This document shows, piece by piece, positions 877 through 6,080 of a stretch of DNA of 6,815 nucleotides. Each line of letters starts with the position of its first letter. Positions within the stretch are counted from its first letter, which is position 1. Made by a program: the position numbers and the translations under genes. Origin of the DNA: Sulfurimonas sp. (GTDB taxonomy: Bacteria > Campylobacterota > Campylobacteria > Campylobacterales > Sulfurimonadaceae); assembly GCA_022712775.1 (NCBI GenBank), contig JAFLJZ010000256.1, forward strand, positions 1 through 6,815. The letters are read 5' to 3'. Under the pieces are notes generated by a model that was given only the letters and a program-made list of their open reading frames with translations, had not been told where the DNA came from and did no database searches.

Positions 877-2910
877 TTAGAATTTCGATAGATGTTTTAC
901 TCTTAACGCATTTTCCATTTCTATTAATATACTAGAAAGGTATCTATAAGCTTCTTTCCAAGCATAGATAAACTCCTGCGTCATTGTATCTTTGAAAACC
1001 TCTTCAATAGCTTCGATAAAGCATGCTCCTATCATTACATAATGTTCTTTTTTTATATCAGCTTCTACATGCGCTTTAGCAATTACTAAAAGTGCGGGGG
1101 TTAAGAGATGAAGCTTATCGATATTTATAGCAAATATGGATATAGATTCAGCCATTCTTGTAAAGTCTTCTTTATTTGTATATGTAAATAAGCTTTCAAG
1201 TTGAGGAAATTTTTCAAATAATAATTTAAACATTACTGAAGTAATCGTGTACGTATGAGTTGTGAGTAAAGGAGCTGTATCTTGAATAATGTGAATGATT
1301 TTTTTAGAGAGCTCTTTTTTTATTAATAATGCTTCTGGTCTACCAAAATAGTAGCCTTGTGAATAATCAACACCTAAGTCTTTTAAAATATTAAATATAT
1401 TTTTATTTGTGACATATTCTCCAACTGTTTTAATATTTTGGCTTTTTGCGAATGTTACAATTGTTTTCACAATGGATAATGATAGCTCGTTCTCTTCAAT
1501 ATTTTTAATTAATGAACCATCTATTTTTATGATATCAGGTTGGTATTCTAGTAATCTGATAAAGTTAGAATATCCAGCACCAAAGTCATCTATAGCTATC
1601 TTAACACCTAGGCTTTTTACCTCTGCTATAAATTCCTTAATAACATTGAAATCTTTTACTTCTTCATCTTCTAAAAGTTCAAAAACTATTCTCGAAGCAT
1701 CTTCTTCATGTTTATATAAAAGTGTAAAAAGTTTTTTTCGTGTAGATTCTTTTTCAATATCTAATATAGAAATATTAATAGTAATATCCATATCTGTATG
1801 TGAGAGTGCTGCAAAAGAATTTTCTAAAACTACAGAGGTGATTTTTGAATAATATCTCCCTTTTTTTGAAACATTTATAAATTCATAGGGAGAAACAATC
1901 TTTTCACTTTGATCAATGAGTCTGACTAAGGATTCATATTTTTCTATGTTATTTGTTTGATTATTTATAATCGGTTGAAAGTAAGATATGATTTGGAAAT
2001 TATCAACTGCTTTTTGAATCATTTTGAGGGTTTTAATGTTTTTCTTTGCATTGTCATGTTCTTTTTTTGCAAAGTTATTTGACACAATGAAGTTATGTTT
2101 CGTTTTTAAAAGTTTTTTCATTCCATATTTAGCATTTTCAAATGAGTTTTTTCCATAAGAGATACTAATAATGATAGATATGTCATACGATAAAGTACCT
2201 ATATTGATATGTGCGTTGTCTATTGTTTCTTGAAAGTCTTTTAATTTTTCTACAGCTTGCTCAATACTGTTTGTACATTCTTCTAAGTTTTTAGCAAAGG
2301 CATATTCTCCATTTCCTAAGATATATACTTTCTTAAACATACTGTCTATAGGTGAGTGTTTTAATAAATCATTCGCAAAACTATCTTCAATTTGCTGTGT
2401 TAACCTTTGTCCATAAAAGTTTTCAATATCATCAAAACCTTCAATTTTAAGTAAAGCAAGAACTGTCTCATCCGAAGAATTAATTAAATCAGTAAGCTGG
2501 CGTTTTGGATTCATAATATCAGTAATATCATCTCGAAGGGCGACAAATTCAATAATCTCATTATCCTTATCTAAAATAGGAATAATCGTTGTTTTAACAT
2601 AATAAGAAGTATTGTTTTTGCTTCTATTTCTAATCATTCCTTTCCATGTTTTTTTTTCATTTTTTATAGTATTCCATATATTTTTAAAGAAAGATTTTGA
2701 ATTATCTGGATGTCTTATAATATTATGGTTCTTACCAATCAACTCATCTTGTGTATATCCTGAAATATTACAAAATTCATCGTTGGCATATGTGATGATT
2801 CCTTTTAGATTTGTTTTAGATACGATTACACTATGGTTAATTGCTTTTTGATACTGTTGTAGGAGTAAAATATTTTGTTCATCATTATTGTTTGTATAGT
2901 TAAATAACAT
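877..2910 (-). CDS. PAS - degenerate GGDEF - EAL phosphodiesterase with a C-terminal globin domain
   Basis: This 677-residue soluble protein has no membrane segment and probably hydrolyses cyclic di-GMP in the cytoplasm. Residues about 22-132 form an Aer-like PAS domain, with 'YANDEF' (41-46), 'NHNIIRHPD' (61-69), W79 and 'RDDIT' (126-130). Residues about 145-280 resemble a GGDEF domain whose signature has become G-N-G-E-Y (199-203), so cyclase activity is unlikely. Residues about 305-530 form an EAL domain. Its motif reads E326-S-L, and N379, E411, D441-D442 ('DDFG'), K462, E498 and Q518 ('QGY') are kept, but the usual EGVE motif reads EYVT. Residues about 540-672 align without gaps, up to a two-residue insertion late in the domain, to the flavohaemoglobin globin: CD1 Phe (F575), proximal His F8 (H614), and equivalents of E. 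coli Hmp Tyr95 (Y624) and Glu135 (E666). The ATG start lies one base after the upstream stop codon, so the gene is probably cotranscribed and translationally coupled. Activity and haem binding are inferred. Confidence 0.9.
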   Translation of the reverse strand: MLFNYTNNNDEQNILLLQQYQKAINHSVIVSKTNLKGIITYANDEFCNISGYTQDELIGKNHNIIRHPDNSKSFFKNIWNTIKNEKKTWKGMIRNRSKNNTSYYVKTTIIPILDKDNEIIEFVALRDDITDIMNPKRQLTDLINSSDETVLALLKIEGFDDIENFYGQRLTQQIEDSFANDLLKHSPIDSMFKKVYILGNGEYAFAKNLEECTNSIEQAVEKLKDFQETIDNAHINIGTLSYDISIIISISYGKNSFENAKYGMKKLLKTKHNFIVSNNFAKKEHDNAKKNIKTLKMIQKAVDNFQIISYFQPIINNQTNNIEKYESLVRLIDQSEKIVSPYEFINVSKKGRYYSKITSVVLENSFAALSHTDMDITINISILDIEKESTRKKLFTLLYKHEEDASRIVFELLEDEEVKDFNVIKEFIAEVKSLGVKIAIDDFGAGYSNFIRLLEYQPDIIKIDGSLIKNIEENELSLSIVKTIVTFAKSQNIKTVGEYVTNKNIFNILKDLGVDYSQGYYFGRPEALLIKKELSKKIIHIIQDTAPLLTTHTYTITSVMFKLLFEKFPQLESLFTYTNKEDFTRMAESISIFAINIDKLHLLTPALLVIAKAHVEADIKKEHYVMIGACFIEAIEEVFKDTMTQEFIYAWKEAYRYLSSILIEMENALRVKHLSKF

Positions 2911-2911
2911 T

Positions 2912-5197
2912 CTAGTTTAATCCTTTTAAAAGTATGTCTTTCATTTTATTTGCTTGAGTAGGTTTTGAGTAAAAATATCCTTGAATATTTTTACAACCAT
3001 GTCCAACGATAAAATCTTTTTGCTCTTTTGTCTCAACACCTTCGGCAATAATATCTAAGTGTAAGTTTTTAGCTAAAGCGATGATTGCTCTAACAATTTC
3101 AGAATCTTCATCATTGGTAGATAAATCATCTATAAATGATTTGTCTATCTTGAGTTTACTAATAGGTAATTTTTTAAGATAAGAAAGTGATGAATAACCT
3201 GTTCCAAAATCGTCTATAGCTATTTTAACACCTATGCTATTGATTTGATTTAATATTTTAATGGCATCTTCTGGGTTTGTCATGATTTGAGATTCTGTTA
3301 CTTCAAGTTCTAACCATTCTGGTTTACATCCTGTTTTTTTAATTAAGTTTTTAAATATTGCGACAAAATCTGTTTGTTGAAGTTGTTTAATCGCAAGATT
3401 CATTGCAAGAATTCCCGGGTTGAGACCTTGTTTATACCATTGGGATATTTGTGTCATTGCTATTTCCATTACAAGTCTATCAAGTTCAACTATAAGTCCT
3501 GTAGACTCAGCAAGTGGAATAAATCTATCTGGTGTAATTAAGCCCATGCTAGGGTGTTGCCATCTTACTAATGCTTCCATACCCACTAGGGTGTCATTTG
3601 AACCATCCACTTGTGCTTGATAATATACTACAAAATCTTTGTTTTTTATGGATGTTCTCAGGTTTGATTCCATAGTAACTCTTTGTAATGCCAGGTGCGT
3701 CATATCTGAACTATAATATTGGAAATTATTTCTACCCTCATTCTTTGCTTTATACATAGCTGAATCAGCATATTTTAGAAGATCTTGCGTGGAAGTACCA
3801 TCATCAGGGTAGATACTAATACCTATACTACTTGATATATAAAGTATGTTTTCTTTAATAATTATAGGTTGAAGAAGTGTATCGATAATCTTTTGTGCTA
3901 GTATAGATGTACCCTGTGCATTCTTTAAATTTTCTATAATAATTGTGAATTCATCACCTCCTAACCTTGCTAAAGAATCTCCTTCTCTTATCGTAGTATT
4001 AAGCCTCTCCGCAATTATCTTTAAGACTTCATCACCAACTGCATGACCTAATGAGTCATTGATTTCTTTAAAGTGATCAAGATCAATAAATAATAAAGCG
4101 AGTTTTCTTTTTTTTCTTTTTGCCTTCAATATTCCTTGTGTTAACCTGTCATTAAAAAGAACTCTATTGGGTAATTTAGTAAGAGCATCATGATTTGCTT
4201 GATAATGCAATATGTCTTTTTGAGCACGTAGCTCATCTTGGGCTTCGAGATGAGACGTGATGTCCCGAGCAGATTCAATAATACCAATGCAGTTTTGCTC
4301 TTTATCAAATAATGGAGATGCTGATAATTCTACATAATTTTTATTTCCATCTACGTCATAATGCGCGTGGATTACAGATGTATGTTGATTCGAATTTAAG
4401 ACATCTCTTAAGGGACAAGGGTGATCAGCACTATCACATGGACTTGAGCGTTGATGTGATACTTCATAACATTTAGGATTATTTAAATCAGCAATAAAAT
4501 TTTTATTTATTCTTATCTCTACAGGATAATTTTTAAGTGTAACATTGTAATCAGCATCAATAACCATTATGGGTTCATGTACACCATCGATTATAGTTTG
4601 CAAATATTTATATTGCTCTTCTAAATCTTTGGTTCTTTCCATGACTTTTTCTTCTAGGATTATATTGATATTTTCTAAATTATTTTGCGTTTCTTTTTCA
4701 ATAGTTATATTTTCAATATTAGCAATAACAGTAATCATATCTTCTTCAATCTCGATACCAAATCCTATTCGAATGGGAAATAGAGTGCCATCTTTATGTT
4801 TTGCTTTAAGTTCTATATTTGTAGATGTTCCTGCTAGTTTTTTACTTTTCATAAAAGCTTTAGATGCTTTTTTATATTTTTTTATTAGGTAATCTGGAAT
4901 GATATTATGCAAGGAAACTTTATTGAGCATTTCATGTTTAGAAAAACCAAACATATTTTCAGCACTTTTATTAAAAATAGTTACAATTTGTTGTTCATTT
5001 ATCGCGATTATTGCATTTTTATTTGATTCTATAATTGTAGAAGTAAAGTGTTCTTTTTGCTTTAAAGTATCTAAAATTTCATTGTATTTTTTGCTAACAA
5101 CACTGTTTTGTTGAAGCGCTTGTTCTGATAGTTTTTCTTTTCTTTTAAGCTTTTTTATCTCTAACTCTAACTCTTTTATTTTGTTTTCTAAAGACAT
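2912..5197 (-). CDS. PAS-PAS-GGDEF-EAL bifunctional cyclic di-GMP enzyme
   Basis: This 761-residue cytoplasmic protein has no membrane segment. Residues 1-50 are a Lys/Glu-rich coiled coil. Residues about 50-167 are a first PAS domain. Residues about 168-200 are a second coiled coil of the kind that links PAS domains to outputs. Residues about 197-315 are a second PAS with a Cys/His-rich insert (C243, H248, C254, H259, C261) and the closing 'ESARDIT'. The GGDEF domain (about 330-500) has an intact GGDEF at 413-417 and an inhibitory I-site R404-x-x-D407 exactly five residues before it, so product-inhibited diguanylate cyclase activity is expected. The EAL domain (about 505-755) keeps E541-A-L, N600, E632 ('EVTE'), D662-D663 ('DDFG'), K683, E719 and E722 ('EGVE') and Q739, so phosphodiesterase activity is also expected. 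Which activity dominates cannot be read from sequence. The ATG lies 6 bp after the ODP-like gene's stop and the gene ends 1 bp before the EAL-globin gene, which indicates an operon. The ribosome-binding site is weak (AAAGTAG), suggesting translational coupling. Confidence 0.93.
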   Translation of the reverse strand: MSLENKIKELELEIKKLKRKEKLSEQALQQNSVVSKKYNEILDTLKQKEHFTSTIIESNKNAIIAINEQQIVTIFNKSAENMFGFSKHEMLNKVSLHNIIPDYLIKKYKKASKAFMKSKKLAGTSTNIELKAKHKDGTLFPIRIGFGIEIEEDMITVIANIENITIEKETQNNLENINIILEEKVMERTKDLEEQYKYLQTIIDGVHEPIMVIDADYNVTLKNYPVEIRINKNFIADLNNPKCYEVSHQRSSPCDSADHPCPLRDVLNSNQHTSVIHAHYDVDGNKNYVELSASPLFDKEQNCIGIIESARDITSHLEAQDELRAQKDILHYQANHDALTKLPNRVLFNDRLTQGILKAKRKKRKLALLFIDLDHFKEINDSLGHAVGDEVLKIIAERLNTTIREGDSLARLGGDEFTIIIENLKNAQGTSILAQKIIDTLLQPIIIKENILYISSSIGISIYPDDGTSTQDLLKYADSAMYKAKNEGRNNFQYYSSDMTHLALQRVTMESNLRTSIKNKDFVVYYQAQVDGSNDTLVGMEALVRWQHPSMGLITPDRFIPLAESTGLIVELDRLVMEIAMTQISQWYKQGLNPGILAMNLAIKQLQQTDFVAIFKNLIKKTGCKPEWLELEVTESQIMTNPEDAIKILNQINSIGVKIAIDDFGTGYSSLSYLKKLPISKLKIDKSFIDDLSTNDEDSEIVRAIIALAKNLHLDIIAEGVETKEQKDFIVGHGCKNIQGYFYSKPTQANKMKDILLKGLN
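2921..2926 (-). promoter_or_regulatory. ribosome-binding site of the EAL-globin gene inside the preceding gene's end
   Basis: AAAGGA on the minus strand lies 10 nt before the ATG at 2908-2910, within the last codons of the upstream GGDEF-EAL gene. The spacing is slightly long, and coupling to upstream translation probably helps initiation. Confidence 0.5.
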
Positions 5198-5203
5198 TTA
5201 TAA

Positions 5204-5986
5204 CTACTTTAAATCTGCATATACTATATCTAAACCACAGCGTAAGTTTCTTAAGTAATCTAGTGCATTAGAGACATTGTCTGAATTTATTATTGAACCA
5301 TGTTGAGGTAATATTGCTTGTATATTTTCATTTTCTATATTTCTTACAAAACCTCGTGCTGCAATATTTGAAGCCATATAATCTATATGAAAAAGATCCA
5401 TATTTTGTTTATGTTTTTCAAAATCCTTAACAACGAGATTCCATTCAATGTCTAGTGCTGCCCATATATCTCCAGAAAATAACATATTTGCACTTAGGTC
5501 TAAGGTTGTAAATGCTCCTGGAAAATGTAAAAAAGGTGCCTCAATAAATTTTAAAATTTTCCCACTCTTAAATACATAGTTTCCTTCTTGGGATATGTCA
5601 TAAAAGTTATAGCCACTTCGACCATAATAAGGGAGCAAAACATTTGTTCTTGCGGAAGTTATGATGGTGATTTCATTGTTAATATCAATCCAATCAACCA
5701 TAGAAGAAGCTATGTCTGGATCTTGGTGACAAAGGATTAGAGCAGATATTTTATCTGGGTTTACAATTGTTGCAATTCTTTTTTTTAATTCTTGATGATA
5801 CAGTCTACTTCCTGGATCTACAAGGATATATTCATCATTATCCTCAATAAGGTAAATATTACATCTAAATGCGGTTTCTTCTTCTATACCCATCCACCAA
5901 ATTTTATGACCATCTAAACTATATAACAAGACTGGATCCTCAGAATCTACAGTAGCATCTATATTTTTTAGCATTGAATTAATCAT
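5204..5986 (-). CDS. ODP-like diiron protein with metallo-beta-lactamase fold
   Basis: The 260-residue protein has a metallo-beta-lactamase fold with the diiron ligand pattern of flavodiiron proteins but no flavodoxin domain, as in the oxygen-binding diiron proteins (ODP) that act as O2/redox sensors in spirochaete chemotaxis. Candidate ligands are H87, D89 and D91 in 'CHQDPD', then H154, D173 ('FSGD') and H229 ('LPQHG'). Sixty-two residues separate D91 from H154 and eighteen separate H154 from D173, matching the flavodiiron spacing H-x-E-x-D-x62-H-x18-D; the last interval is 55, against about 60. The residue after D91 is Ile, where many family members have His. There is no signal peptide or membrane segment, so the protein is cytoplasmic. 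It is the first gene of the cluster, 6 bp before the GGDEF-EAL gene, which suggests it senses for or signals to those enzymes. The ATG at 5984-5986 follows a poor GGGGT ribosome-binding site; Met5 is an alternative start. A hydrolase or NO/O2 reductase role is not excluded. Confidence 0.85.
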   Translation of the reverse strand: MINSMLKNIDATVDSEDPVLLYSLDGHKIWWMGIEEETAFRCNIYLIEDNDEYILVDPGSRLYHQELKKRIATIVNPDKISALILCHQDPDIASSMVDWIDINNEITIITSARTNVLLPYYGRSGYNFYDISQEGNYVFKSGKILKFIEAPFLHFPGAFTTLDLSANMLFSGDIWAALDIEWNLVVKDFEKHKQNMDLFHIDYMASNIAARGFVRNIENENIQAILPQHGSIINSDNVSNALDYLRNLRCGLDIVYADLK

Positions 5987-6032: not shown

Positions 6033-6063
6033 ATGCAGAAATAGTACAAAAAGAATTAGTCAA
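6033..6063 (-). promoter_or_regulatory. candidate promoter of the three-gene c-di-GMP cluster
   Basis: On the minus strand TTGACT (6058-6063) resembles a -35 box, and TATAAA (6033-6038) or the overlapping AGTATA resembles a -10 box. The spacing is 19 bp to TATAAA and about 17 bp to AGTATA. The -10 lies about 46 bp before the ODP-like start codon. The -35 overlaps the left copy of an 11-bp tandem repeat, so a bound regulator there could control the cluster. This is a pattern match in AT-rich DNA only. Confidence 0.4.
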
Positions 6064-6080
6064 AATTTGGTCAAAATGGG
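6059..6080. repeat. 11-bp tandem direct repeat, possible operator
   Basis: Two abutting copies, GTCAAAATTTG (6059-6069) and GTCAAAATGGG (6070-6080), match at 9 of 11 positions. The 11-bp period puts both copies on the same face of the helix, as in binding sites of OmpR/PhoB-type response regulators. The repeat lies in the divergent intergenic region and overlaps the candidate -35 box of the minus-strand cluster. Regulator and function are unknown. Confidence 0.4.

What the first reader, a model, noticed from the sequence alone, without database searches (positions are those of the whole stretch)
895..1293. Globin domain fused to the C-terminus of an EAL phosphodiesterase
Residues about 540-672 align nearly gaplessly with the flavohaemoglobin globin (compared with the E. 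coli Hmp sequence from memory). CD1 Phe (F575), proximal His (H614) and equivalents of Hmp Tyr95 and Glu135 (Y624, E666) are kept. The distal pocket differs: B10 Tyr is Phe (F561) and E7 Gln aligns with Asp (D582). Known globin-coupled sensors usually place a sensor globin at the N-terminus, ahead of the output; here a flavohaemoglobin-type globin follows the EAL domain. It may be a haem sensor with altered ligand preference that controls c-di-GMP hydrolysis.
Basis: partly seen in the sequence, partly recalled or inferred. Interest (0 to 1): 0.75.

Follow-up and report, generated by a model that had tools for sequence, protein, structure and literature searches.

The report
Globin tail on a c-di-GMP phosphodiesterase
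A bacterial enzyme that probably breaks down the signal molecule cyclic di-GMP carries a haemoglobin-like domain at its tail end, where such sensors are not normally found, so it probably lets a gas or redox change adjust the decision between swimming and settling.

Summary

Beyond the finding: (1) the N-terminal PAS is Aer-type and keeps five of the seven Aer FAD-pocket residues named in print; GGDEF is degenerate; EAL catalytic residues are intact. So probably a dual-input phosphodiesterase, FAD redox plus haem. (2) Four more fusions (P0001, P0003-5); 118 of 123 held relatives end within 20 residues of EAL. (3) The five globins form one clade (98/95), their backbones two (AU p=0.000135), as if the tail moved. 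(4) The gene is third in a tight row behind an oxygen-binding di-iron protein and a PAS-GGDEF-EAL.

Haem, FAD, ligand and PDE control are inferred. It is not a flavohaemoglobin (no reductase) nor a classical globin-coupled sensor (globin not N-terminal). Six searches of an open-access library listed no EAL-globin paper.

The parts
877..2910 (-). Gene for the 677-aa PAS / degenerate GGDEF / EAL / globin protein
   Evidence: ORF; domains; model
895..1311 (-). F-type globin domain, residues 534-672
   Evidence: model of residues 531-677 pLDDT 88.8, pTM 0.82; fold matches
1228..1230 (-). B10 position F561 (Tyr in E. coli Hmp and in the four other fusions)
1165..1167 (-). E7 position D582 (Gln in Hmp; Asn or Gln in the other fusions)
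1186..1188 (-). CD1 Phe F575
1069..1071 (-). Proximal (F8) His H614
1039..1041 (-). Y624, equivalent of Hmp Tyr95
913..915 (-). E666, equivalent of Hmp Glu135
1333..2022 (-). EAL phosphodiesterase domain, residues 297-526; E326, N379, E411, E414, D441, D442, K462, E498, Q518 kept
2071..2508 (-). Degenerate GGDEF-like domain, residues 135-280 (motif reads GNGEY)
2518..2853 (-). Aer/NifL-type PAS, residues 20-131; H62, R66, W79, N95, R126 match Aer FAD-pocket residues
   Evidence: alignments; Aer residues from PMC9668731 passages; codons
2912..5197 (-). Upstream neighbour: PAS-PAS-GGDEF-EAL, 761 aa, intact GGDEF motif
5204..5986 (-). [quoted passage not shown]
   Evidence: Pfam ODP 4.7e-60; PDB 6qrq 8.9e-39, 6qnm 1.1e-36 with the HQDPD motif kept

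Best explanation
A cytoplasmic c-di-GMP phosphodiesterase with two cofactor sensors. At the N-terminus an Aer-type PAS probably holds FAD and reads the redox state; a degenerate, non-catalytic GGDEF links it to an EAL domain with a complete catalytic set; at the C-terminus an F-type globin probably holds haem b on H614. Ligand binding or a change of haem oxidation state shifts the globin, which is joined to EAL by a linker of only about nine residues, and so changes EAL activity. In this protein the B10 Tyr that holds bound O2 in flavohaemoglobins is replaced by Phe and E7 is Asp, so tight O2 binding and NO dioxygenation are unlikely; NO, CO or haem redox state, or O2 at higher concentration, is the likelier signal. 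With the upstream ODP and PAS-GGDEF-EAL genes it would form one oxygen/redox/NO-to-c-di-GMP control unit. Shown here: sequence, domain order, residues, predicted fold, relatives, gene order. Inferred: cofactors, ligand, regulation, co-transcription.
For: Globin family and fold matches. Proximal His, CD1 Phe, Tyr and Glu kept in all five fusions. EAL catalytic columns invariant in the 31 sequences. Five Aer FAD-pocket residues kept. The globin is optional on this backbone: P0006-P0008 and P0062 (528-532 aa, 60-76% identical) end just after EAL, P0003-P0005 carry it, as one would expect of an added input module. A neighbour is an ODP, a family with members solved as oxygen-binding di-iron proteins. 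The three genes are 6 and 1 bases apart on one strand. Separate F-globin and GGDEF-EAL genes lie side by side in a Rhizorhabdus plasmid (73 bases apart) and a Caballeronia plasmid; two cases only, not a survey.
Against: No spectrum, binding or activity data. Globin identity between this protein and its nearest fusion P0003 (55.5%) is much lower than for the other domains (76-84%), which could mean weak constraint. Full-length pTM is 0.56, so how globin and EAL touch is unknown. Of the seven Aer FAD-pocket residues named in the passages, M69 is Ile (I78) here and T27 could not be placed in the printed alignment. Conservation of the ODP neighbourhood could not be tested, because the contigs of P0001 and P0003-5 could not be fetched. 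The globin clade is judged against only 16 non-fused globins, one of them from Campylobacterota.
Confidence: 0.6

Rival explanations
1. The globin is a tethered NO- or O2-consuming haem enzyme (NO dioxygenase) that protects the FAD-PAS or lowers NO locally, and does not signal to EAL.
For: Flavohaemoglobins are NO dioxygenases (PMC3820574 title and passages); the proximal His-Tyr-Glu set is kept; the PAS flavin might serve as reductant (inference).
Against: No reductase domain in the chain. In E. coli flavohaemoglobin the B10 Tyr hydroxyl is reported as essential for O2 binding and catalysis (title of Gardner 2000 seen in the reference list of PMC3820574) and here it is Phe. The other fusions keep Tyr, so this rival is stronger for them.
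Confidence: 0.12
2. An ordinary high-affinity O2 sensor, as in DosP or globin-coupled sensors, with only the domain order changed.
For: Four other fusions keep B10 Tyr and E7 Gln or Asn; the neighbour is an oxygen-binding ODP; O2-controlled EAL proteins are known (PMC8846402 passages).
Against: F561 and D582 in this protein.
Confidence: 0.13
3. The tail has lost haem sensing and is a decaying or purely structural (dimer) domain in this protein.
For: Large divergence of the globin relative to the backbone and two distal-pocket changes.
Against: The frame is open to the end, proximal His, CD1 Phe, Tyr and Glu are kept, and the model is confident.
Confidence: 0.1
4. The FAD of the PAS reduces the globin haem in cis or across a dimer, making one redox relay in which haem turnover and not binding sets EAL activity.
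For: The chain appears to hold both cofactor types of a flavohaemoglobin.
Against: No NAD(P)H-binding domain among the Pfam hits; no PAS-globin contact could be judged at pTM 0.56; pure inference.
Confidence: 0.05

Closest known systems
Flavohaemoglobin Hmp and single-domain F-globins (thermoglobin, Vitreoscilla Hb, Campylobacter Cgb)
   Same: Globin sequence and fold; proximal His, CD1 Phe, Tyr95 and Glu135 equivalents
   Different: No reductase; fused behind EAL; B10 Phe and E7 Asp, where the natural comparison sequences have Tyr and, mostly, Gln
Globin-coupled sensors (DgcO, DcpG, GCS-HD-GYP)
   Same: Haem-globin input joined to a c-di-GMP enzyme (passages of PMC10882959, PMC8846402)
   Different: Those have an N-terminal globin (protoglobin/S type); here an F-type globin sits at the C-terminus
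DosP/PdeO
   Same: Gas-linked EAL phosphodiesterase; DosP structures are among the top full-length Foldseek matches, at low TM (about 0.35) because domains are placed differently
   Different: DosP uses a haem PAS at the N-terminus; here the PAS looks like an FAD PAS and the haem domain is the tail
HGbRL of Methylacidiphilum infernorum (F-like globin with Roadblock/LC7)
   Same: Haemoglobin-like globin proposed as a sensor; matches by sequence, 2.3e-8 (3wfw; start of the PMC4476040 abstract)
   Different: Globin is N-terminal; different partner; swapped haem sites
REC-PAS-GGDEF*-EAL and PAS-GGDEF*-EAL proteins of Campylobacterota
   Same: Same backbone, 36-76% identical among the 120 listed
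   Different: No globin in 117 of the 120 listed; by my count 102 of the 120 carry a receiver domain (PF00072)

Membership tests
F-type globin | 3-over-3 globin fold | tested here: met
F-type globin | Sequence closer to flavohaemoglobin globins than to protoglobin/S globins | tested here: met
   NCBIfam flavohaemoprotein 1e-31; no protoglobin hit for this protein at E up to 1; P0003 and P0005 give protoglobin matches below the cut-off
F-type globin | Proximal His, CD1 Phe, Tyr95/Glu135 pair | tested here: met
F-type globin | Distal B10 Tyr and E7 Gln (typical, not essential to the fold) | tested here: not met
   F561 and D582
F-type globin | Binds haem b | not testable with these tools
   needs protein
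Flavohaemoglobin (Hmp) | C-terminal FAD/NAD(P)H reductase in the same chain | tested here: not met
   The chain ends with the globin; NCBIfam match covers positions 2-143 of 399
Globin-coupled sensor | N-terminal globin before the output | tested here: not met
   Globin at 534-672 after EAL at 297-526; definition in PMC1457004 passages
Globin-coupled sensor | Ligand at haem changes output activity | not testable with these tools
   needs assay
EAL c-di-GMP phosphodiesterase | EAL fold and metal/catalytic residues (residue list recalled from RocR-type enzymes) | tested here: met
   the EAL triplet itself reads ESL, first Glu kept
EAL c-di-GMP phosphodiesterase | Hydrolyses c-di-GMP | not testable with these tools
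   needs assay
Active diguanylate cyclase | GG(D/E)EF motif | tested here: not met
   GNGEY at 199-203; no Pfam GGDEF hit at E up to 1
Aer-type FAD PAS | Aer FAD-pocket residues named in PMC9668731 passages: T27, H53, R57, M69, W70, N85, R115 | tested here: met
   5 of 7 kept: H62, R66, W79, N95, R126 in the alignment; M69 is I78 here; T27 could not be placed (the printed chain has Gln there by my numbering)
Aer-type FAD PAS | Binds FAD | not testable with these tools
   needs protein
ODP (neighbour gene) | ODP sequence family and HQDPD motif | tested here: met

The most novel reading that the evidence does not exclude
F-type globin tails are a mobile sensor module that has been clipped on to, and exchanged between, PAS-EAL phosphodiesterases which already read redox through FAD, giving a phosphodiesterase that carries both cofactors of a flavohaemoglobin. 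In this protein nature has made the B10 Tyr-to-Phe change that laboratories made in thermoglobin and Vitreoscilla Hb, turning an O2-holding globin into an NO/CO or haem-redox sensor, possibly reduced in cis by the PAS flavin.
Probability: 0.15. Interest if true: 0.85.

Novelty: new variant of a known kind. Interest (0 to 1): 0.6.

Why it matters
The passages I read describe globin control of c-di-GMP only through N-terminal globin/protoglobin sensors. A C-terminal F-type globin on an EAL enzyme would show that the respiratory/NO-defence branch of globins has also been drawn into c-di-GMP signalling, and that EAL activity can be set from both ends of the chain. The set of fused and globin-less siblings (P0003-5 against P0006-8) is a ready natural experiment: what does the tail add? 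The five fusions also differ at B10 and E7, a natural series for ligand choice.

Tried and rejected
Chance match: rejected. Flavohaemoglobin proper: rejected, no reductase. Classical globin-coupled sensor: rejected on domain order and globin type. That B10 Phe belongs to the architecture: rejected, P0001 and P0003-5 have Tyr. Thermoglobin as a natural B10-Phe precedent: rejected, the PDB chain 7dih is an engineered Y29F mutant (title). One single backbone for all fusions: rejected (AU p 0.000135), with the caution that the program warns of long branches meeting in that tree. Caballeronia and Rhizorhabdus plasmid hits as further fusions: rejected, they are separate neighbouring genes. Plasmid tblastn with the full protein: 0 of the 5000 best-scoring records hold 80% of it in one place (the 5000-record limit was reached). 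Genome-contig scans: the first found no relative, the second two Clostridium globins and no fusion (pattern-based, so weak negatives). Viral contigs: none. Promoter scan no better than shuffles (3 against a mean of 2.4) and no Rfam family at the gathering score. Alignment A4 misplaced two Clostridium globins and was not used for folding. No dN/dS could be computed for P0003-5, whose DNA was out of reach. The full-length fold search is filled by EAL rows and does not test the globin; it was folded alone for that.

Full report
WHAT IS THERE. The minus strand of the window carries, in order of transcription, an ODP-family metallo-beta-lactamase (5986-5204), a PAS-PAS-GGDEF-EAL protein (5197-2912), the 677-aa protein in question (2910-877) and a DUF445 protein (810-100). 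The first three genes are 6 and 1 bases apart, so they are probably one transcription unit (inference). The window has 29.8% G+C. No whole genome is held for it. Where the listed relatives of the backbone bear names, these are Sulfurimonas, Hydrogenimonas, Arcobacteraceae and Campylobacterota, so the source is probably a Campylobacterota bacterium (inference).

POCKET. In an alignment of 22 globins CD1 Phe, proximal His and the Tyr95 equivalent are kept in 22 of 22 rows; the Glu135 equivalent in 20 of 22, the other two being rows cut short there. B10 is Tyr in 20 of the 21 rows other than the window; the exception is 7dih, an engineered Y29F mutant by its PDB title. The window has Phe. E7 is Gln in 16 of the 21, Asn in 3 (P0003-5), His in 2 (two copies on one Sulfurimonas plasmid, one truncated), and Asp only in the window. 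These rows are hand-picked: the five fusions, 14 globins from 13 of the 300 plasmid records with a hit, two Clostridium loci and one PDB chain. A title in the reference list of PMC3820574 (Gardner 2000) says the B10 Tyr hydroxyl of E. coli flavohaemoglobin is essential for O2 binding and catalysis (seen as a title). That is why I infer weak O2 binding and little NO dioxygenation for this protein.

THE REST OF THE CHAIN. The PAS matches 3ewk (2.3e-29; that this is MmoS is recalled), Aer (8dik, 1.2e-24) and NifL (2gj3, 5.3e-18), and more weakly LOV domains. Of the Aer residues that the passages of PMC9668731 place around FAD, H53, R57, W70, N85 and R115 line up with H62, R66, W79, N95 and R126 here; M69 lines up with I78, and T27 could not be placed in the printed alignment. 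The GGDEF-like part reads GNGEY and gives no Pfam hit, so it is judged non-catalytic. In EAL, E326, N379, E411, E414, D441, D442, K462, E498 and Q518 are invariant in the 31-row alignment A5; that these are the catalytic and metal residues is recalled from RocR-type enzymes.

RELATIVES. A search with the globin region found one fusion among 823 candidates, P0001 (689 aa, 39% identical over 674 columns), and a search with P0001's globin found only P0001 itself among 220. These searches need shared exact words, so remote fusions could be missed. A profile search with the window and P0001 gave 5083 proteins at E up to 1e-10 among 7995 scored candidates (a capped set), of which 120 were listed; 3 of those 120 carry PF00042 (P0003, P0004, P0005; 673 aa, 74-75% identical). 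P0001 itself was not in that list, though a query member, for a reason I do not know. P0006, P0007, P0008 and P0062 (528-532 aa) are the same backbone, ending within a few residues of EAL. Of the 123 proteins held (window, P0001-P0122), only the five fusions have more than 20 residues after residue 526 of the window. By my count 102 of the 120 listed carry a receiver domain. So the fusion looks rare: five proteins including the window.

HISTORY. A tree of the backbone (residues 15-526; 53 of the 123 proteins held, chosen by me) puts the fusions in two places: window with P0003-5, sister to globin-less P0006; and P0001 in a clade with globin-less P0009, P0012, P0013, P0016 and P0053. One clade for all five is rejected, AU p=0.000135; the program warns that long branches meet. 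A tree of 21 globins (one truncated duplicate left out) joins the five fused globins with support 98/95. Distance ratios globin/backbone with bootstrap ranges are 3.2 (2.1-4.7) for window-P0003, 3.6 (2.4-5.3) for window-P0005, 1.8 (0.9-3.4) for P0003-P0005 and 0.75 (0.52-1.11) for window-P0001. Tail and backbone therefore seem to have different histories. Either the tail moved between backbones, or it was gained more than once from a related globin, or it was gained early, lost often and sped up in the window's line. The small set of non-fused globins (16, one of Campylobacterota) cannot decide between these.

NEIGHBOURS. The ODP gene matches two ODP structures at 8.9e-39 and 1.1e-36 with the HQDPD motif kept. 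An ODP as an oxygen sensor in chemotaxis (Muok 2019) is known to me here from a reference title seen. In two plasmids an F-globin gene and a GGDEF-EAL gene lie side by side: Rhizorhabdus wittichii Swit_5299/5300 and Caballeronia, read from ORFs in an unannotated stretch. This is a hint that the pair works together, from two cases that the search itself drew to my attention.

HOW IT PROBABLY WORKS. FAD-PAS reads the redox state, the globin reads a haem ligand or haem oxidation, and both act on one EAL enzyme, lowering or sparing c-di-GMP and so shifting motile against sessile life. The direction of each effect is unknown. The linker between EAL and the first globin helix is short (about 527-535, lowest confidence at 530-532), so a movement of the globin could reach EAL directly (inference).

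LITERATURE. Ten searches of the open-access library were used. Six bore on the fusion, and by title and start of abstract none of the listed papers deals with an EAL protein carrying a C-terminal or F-type globin, 15 of 23 papers were listed, and subscription papers are mostly not held. I read passages only, of PMC1457004, PMC10882959, PMC8846402, PMC9668731, PMC9665402, PMC10653840 and PMC3820574. [quoted passage not shown] PMC10882959 describes GCS-HD-GYP and DcpG.

VERDICT. A real and unusual architecture: a new variant of haem-sensor control of c-di-GMP, with the function inferred.

Noticed in passing
window 5204-5986 (-): ODP-type di-iron metallo-beta-lactamase heads the gene row; ODPs are oxygen-binding, so two or three oxygen/redox sensors may feed one c-di-GMP unit.
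   Followed up: partly
window 2912-5197 (-): PAS-PAS-GGDEF-EAL neighbour keeps the GGDEF motif, with REGD five residues before it, the usual place of an inhibitory site (recalled), so cyclase and phosphodiesterase may be paired as in dosCP.
   Followed up: no
window 6059-6077: Direct repeat GTCAAAAT at 6059-6066 and 6070-6077, 11 bases apart, between the divergent genes; seen by eye, below the length limit of the repeat search. Could be a regulator site.
   Followed up: no
L003 4998-5429 and 10022-10414: Sulfurimonas lithotrophica plasmid holds two single-domain F-globins with E7 His; the second is a near-identical copy with a different, shorter end.
   Followed up: partly
L006 1959-4614; L004 2368-5598: F-globin or flavohaemoglobin genes lie directly beside GGDEF-EAL genes in a Rhizorhabdus and a Caballeronia plasmid: separate genes, the same pairing as the fusion.
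   Followed up: partly
L005 3227-5578: Sulfurimonas aquatica plasmid carries a REC-REC-PAS-GGDEF-EAL relative without globin, flanked by HipA-family toxin genes.
   Followed up: no
P0037, P0040, P0047, P0050, P0061, P0068, P0117 (1004-1009 aa): Seven listed relatives of the backbone have a further Pfam domain PF08376; this may be a nitrate/nitrite-sensing domain (name recalled), i.e. another swapped sensor on the same backbone.
   Followed up: no
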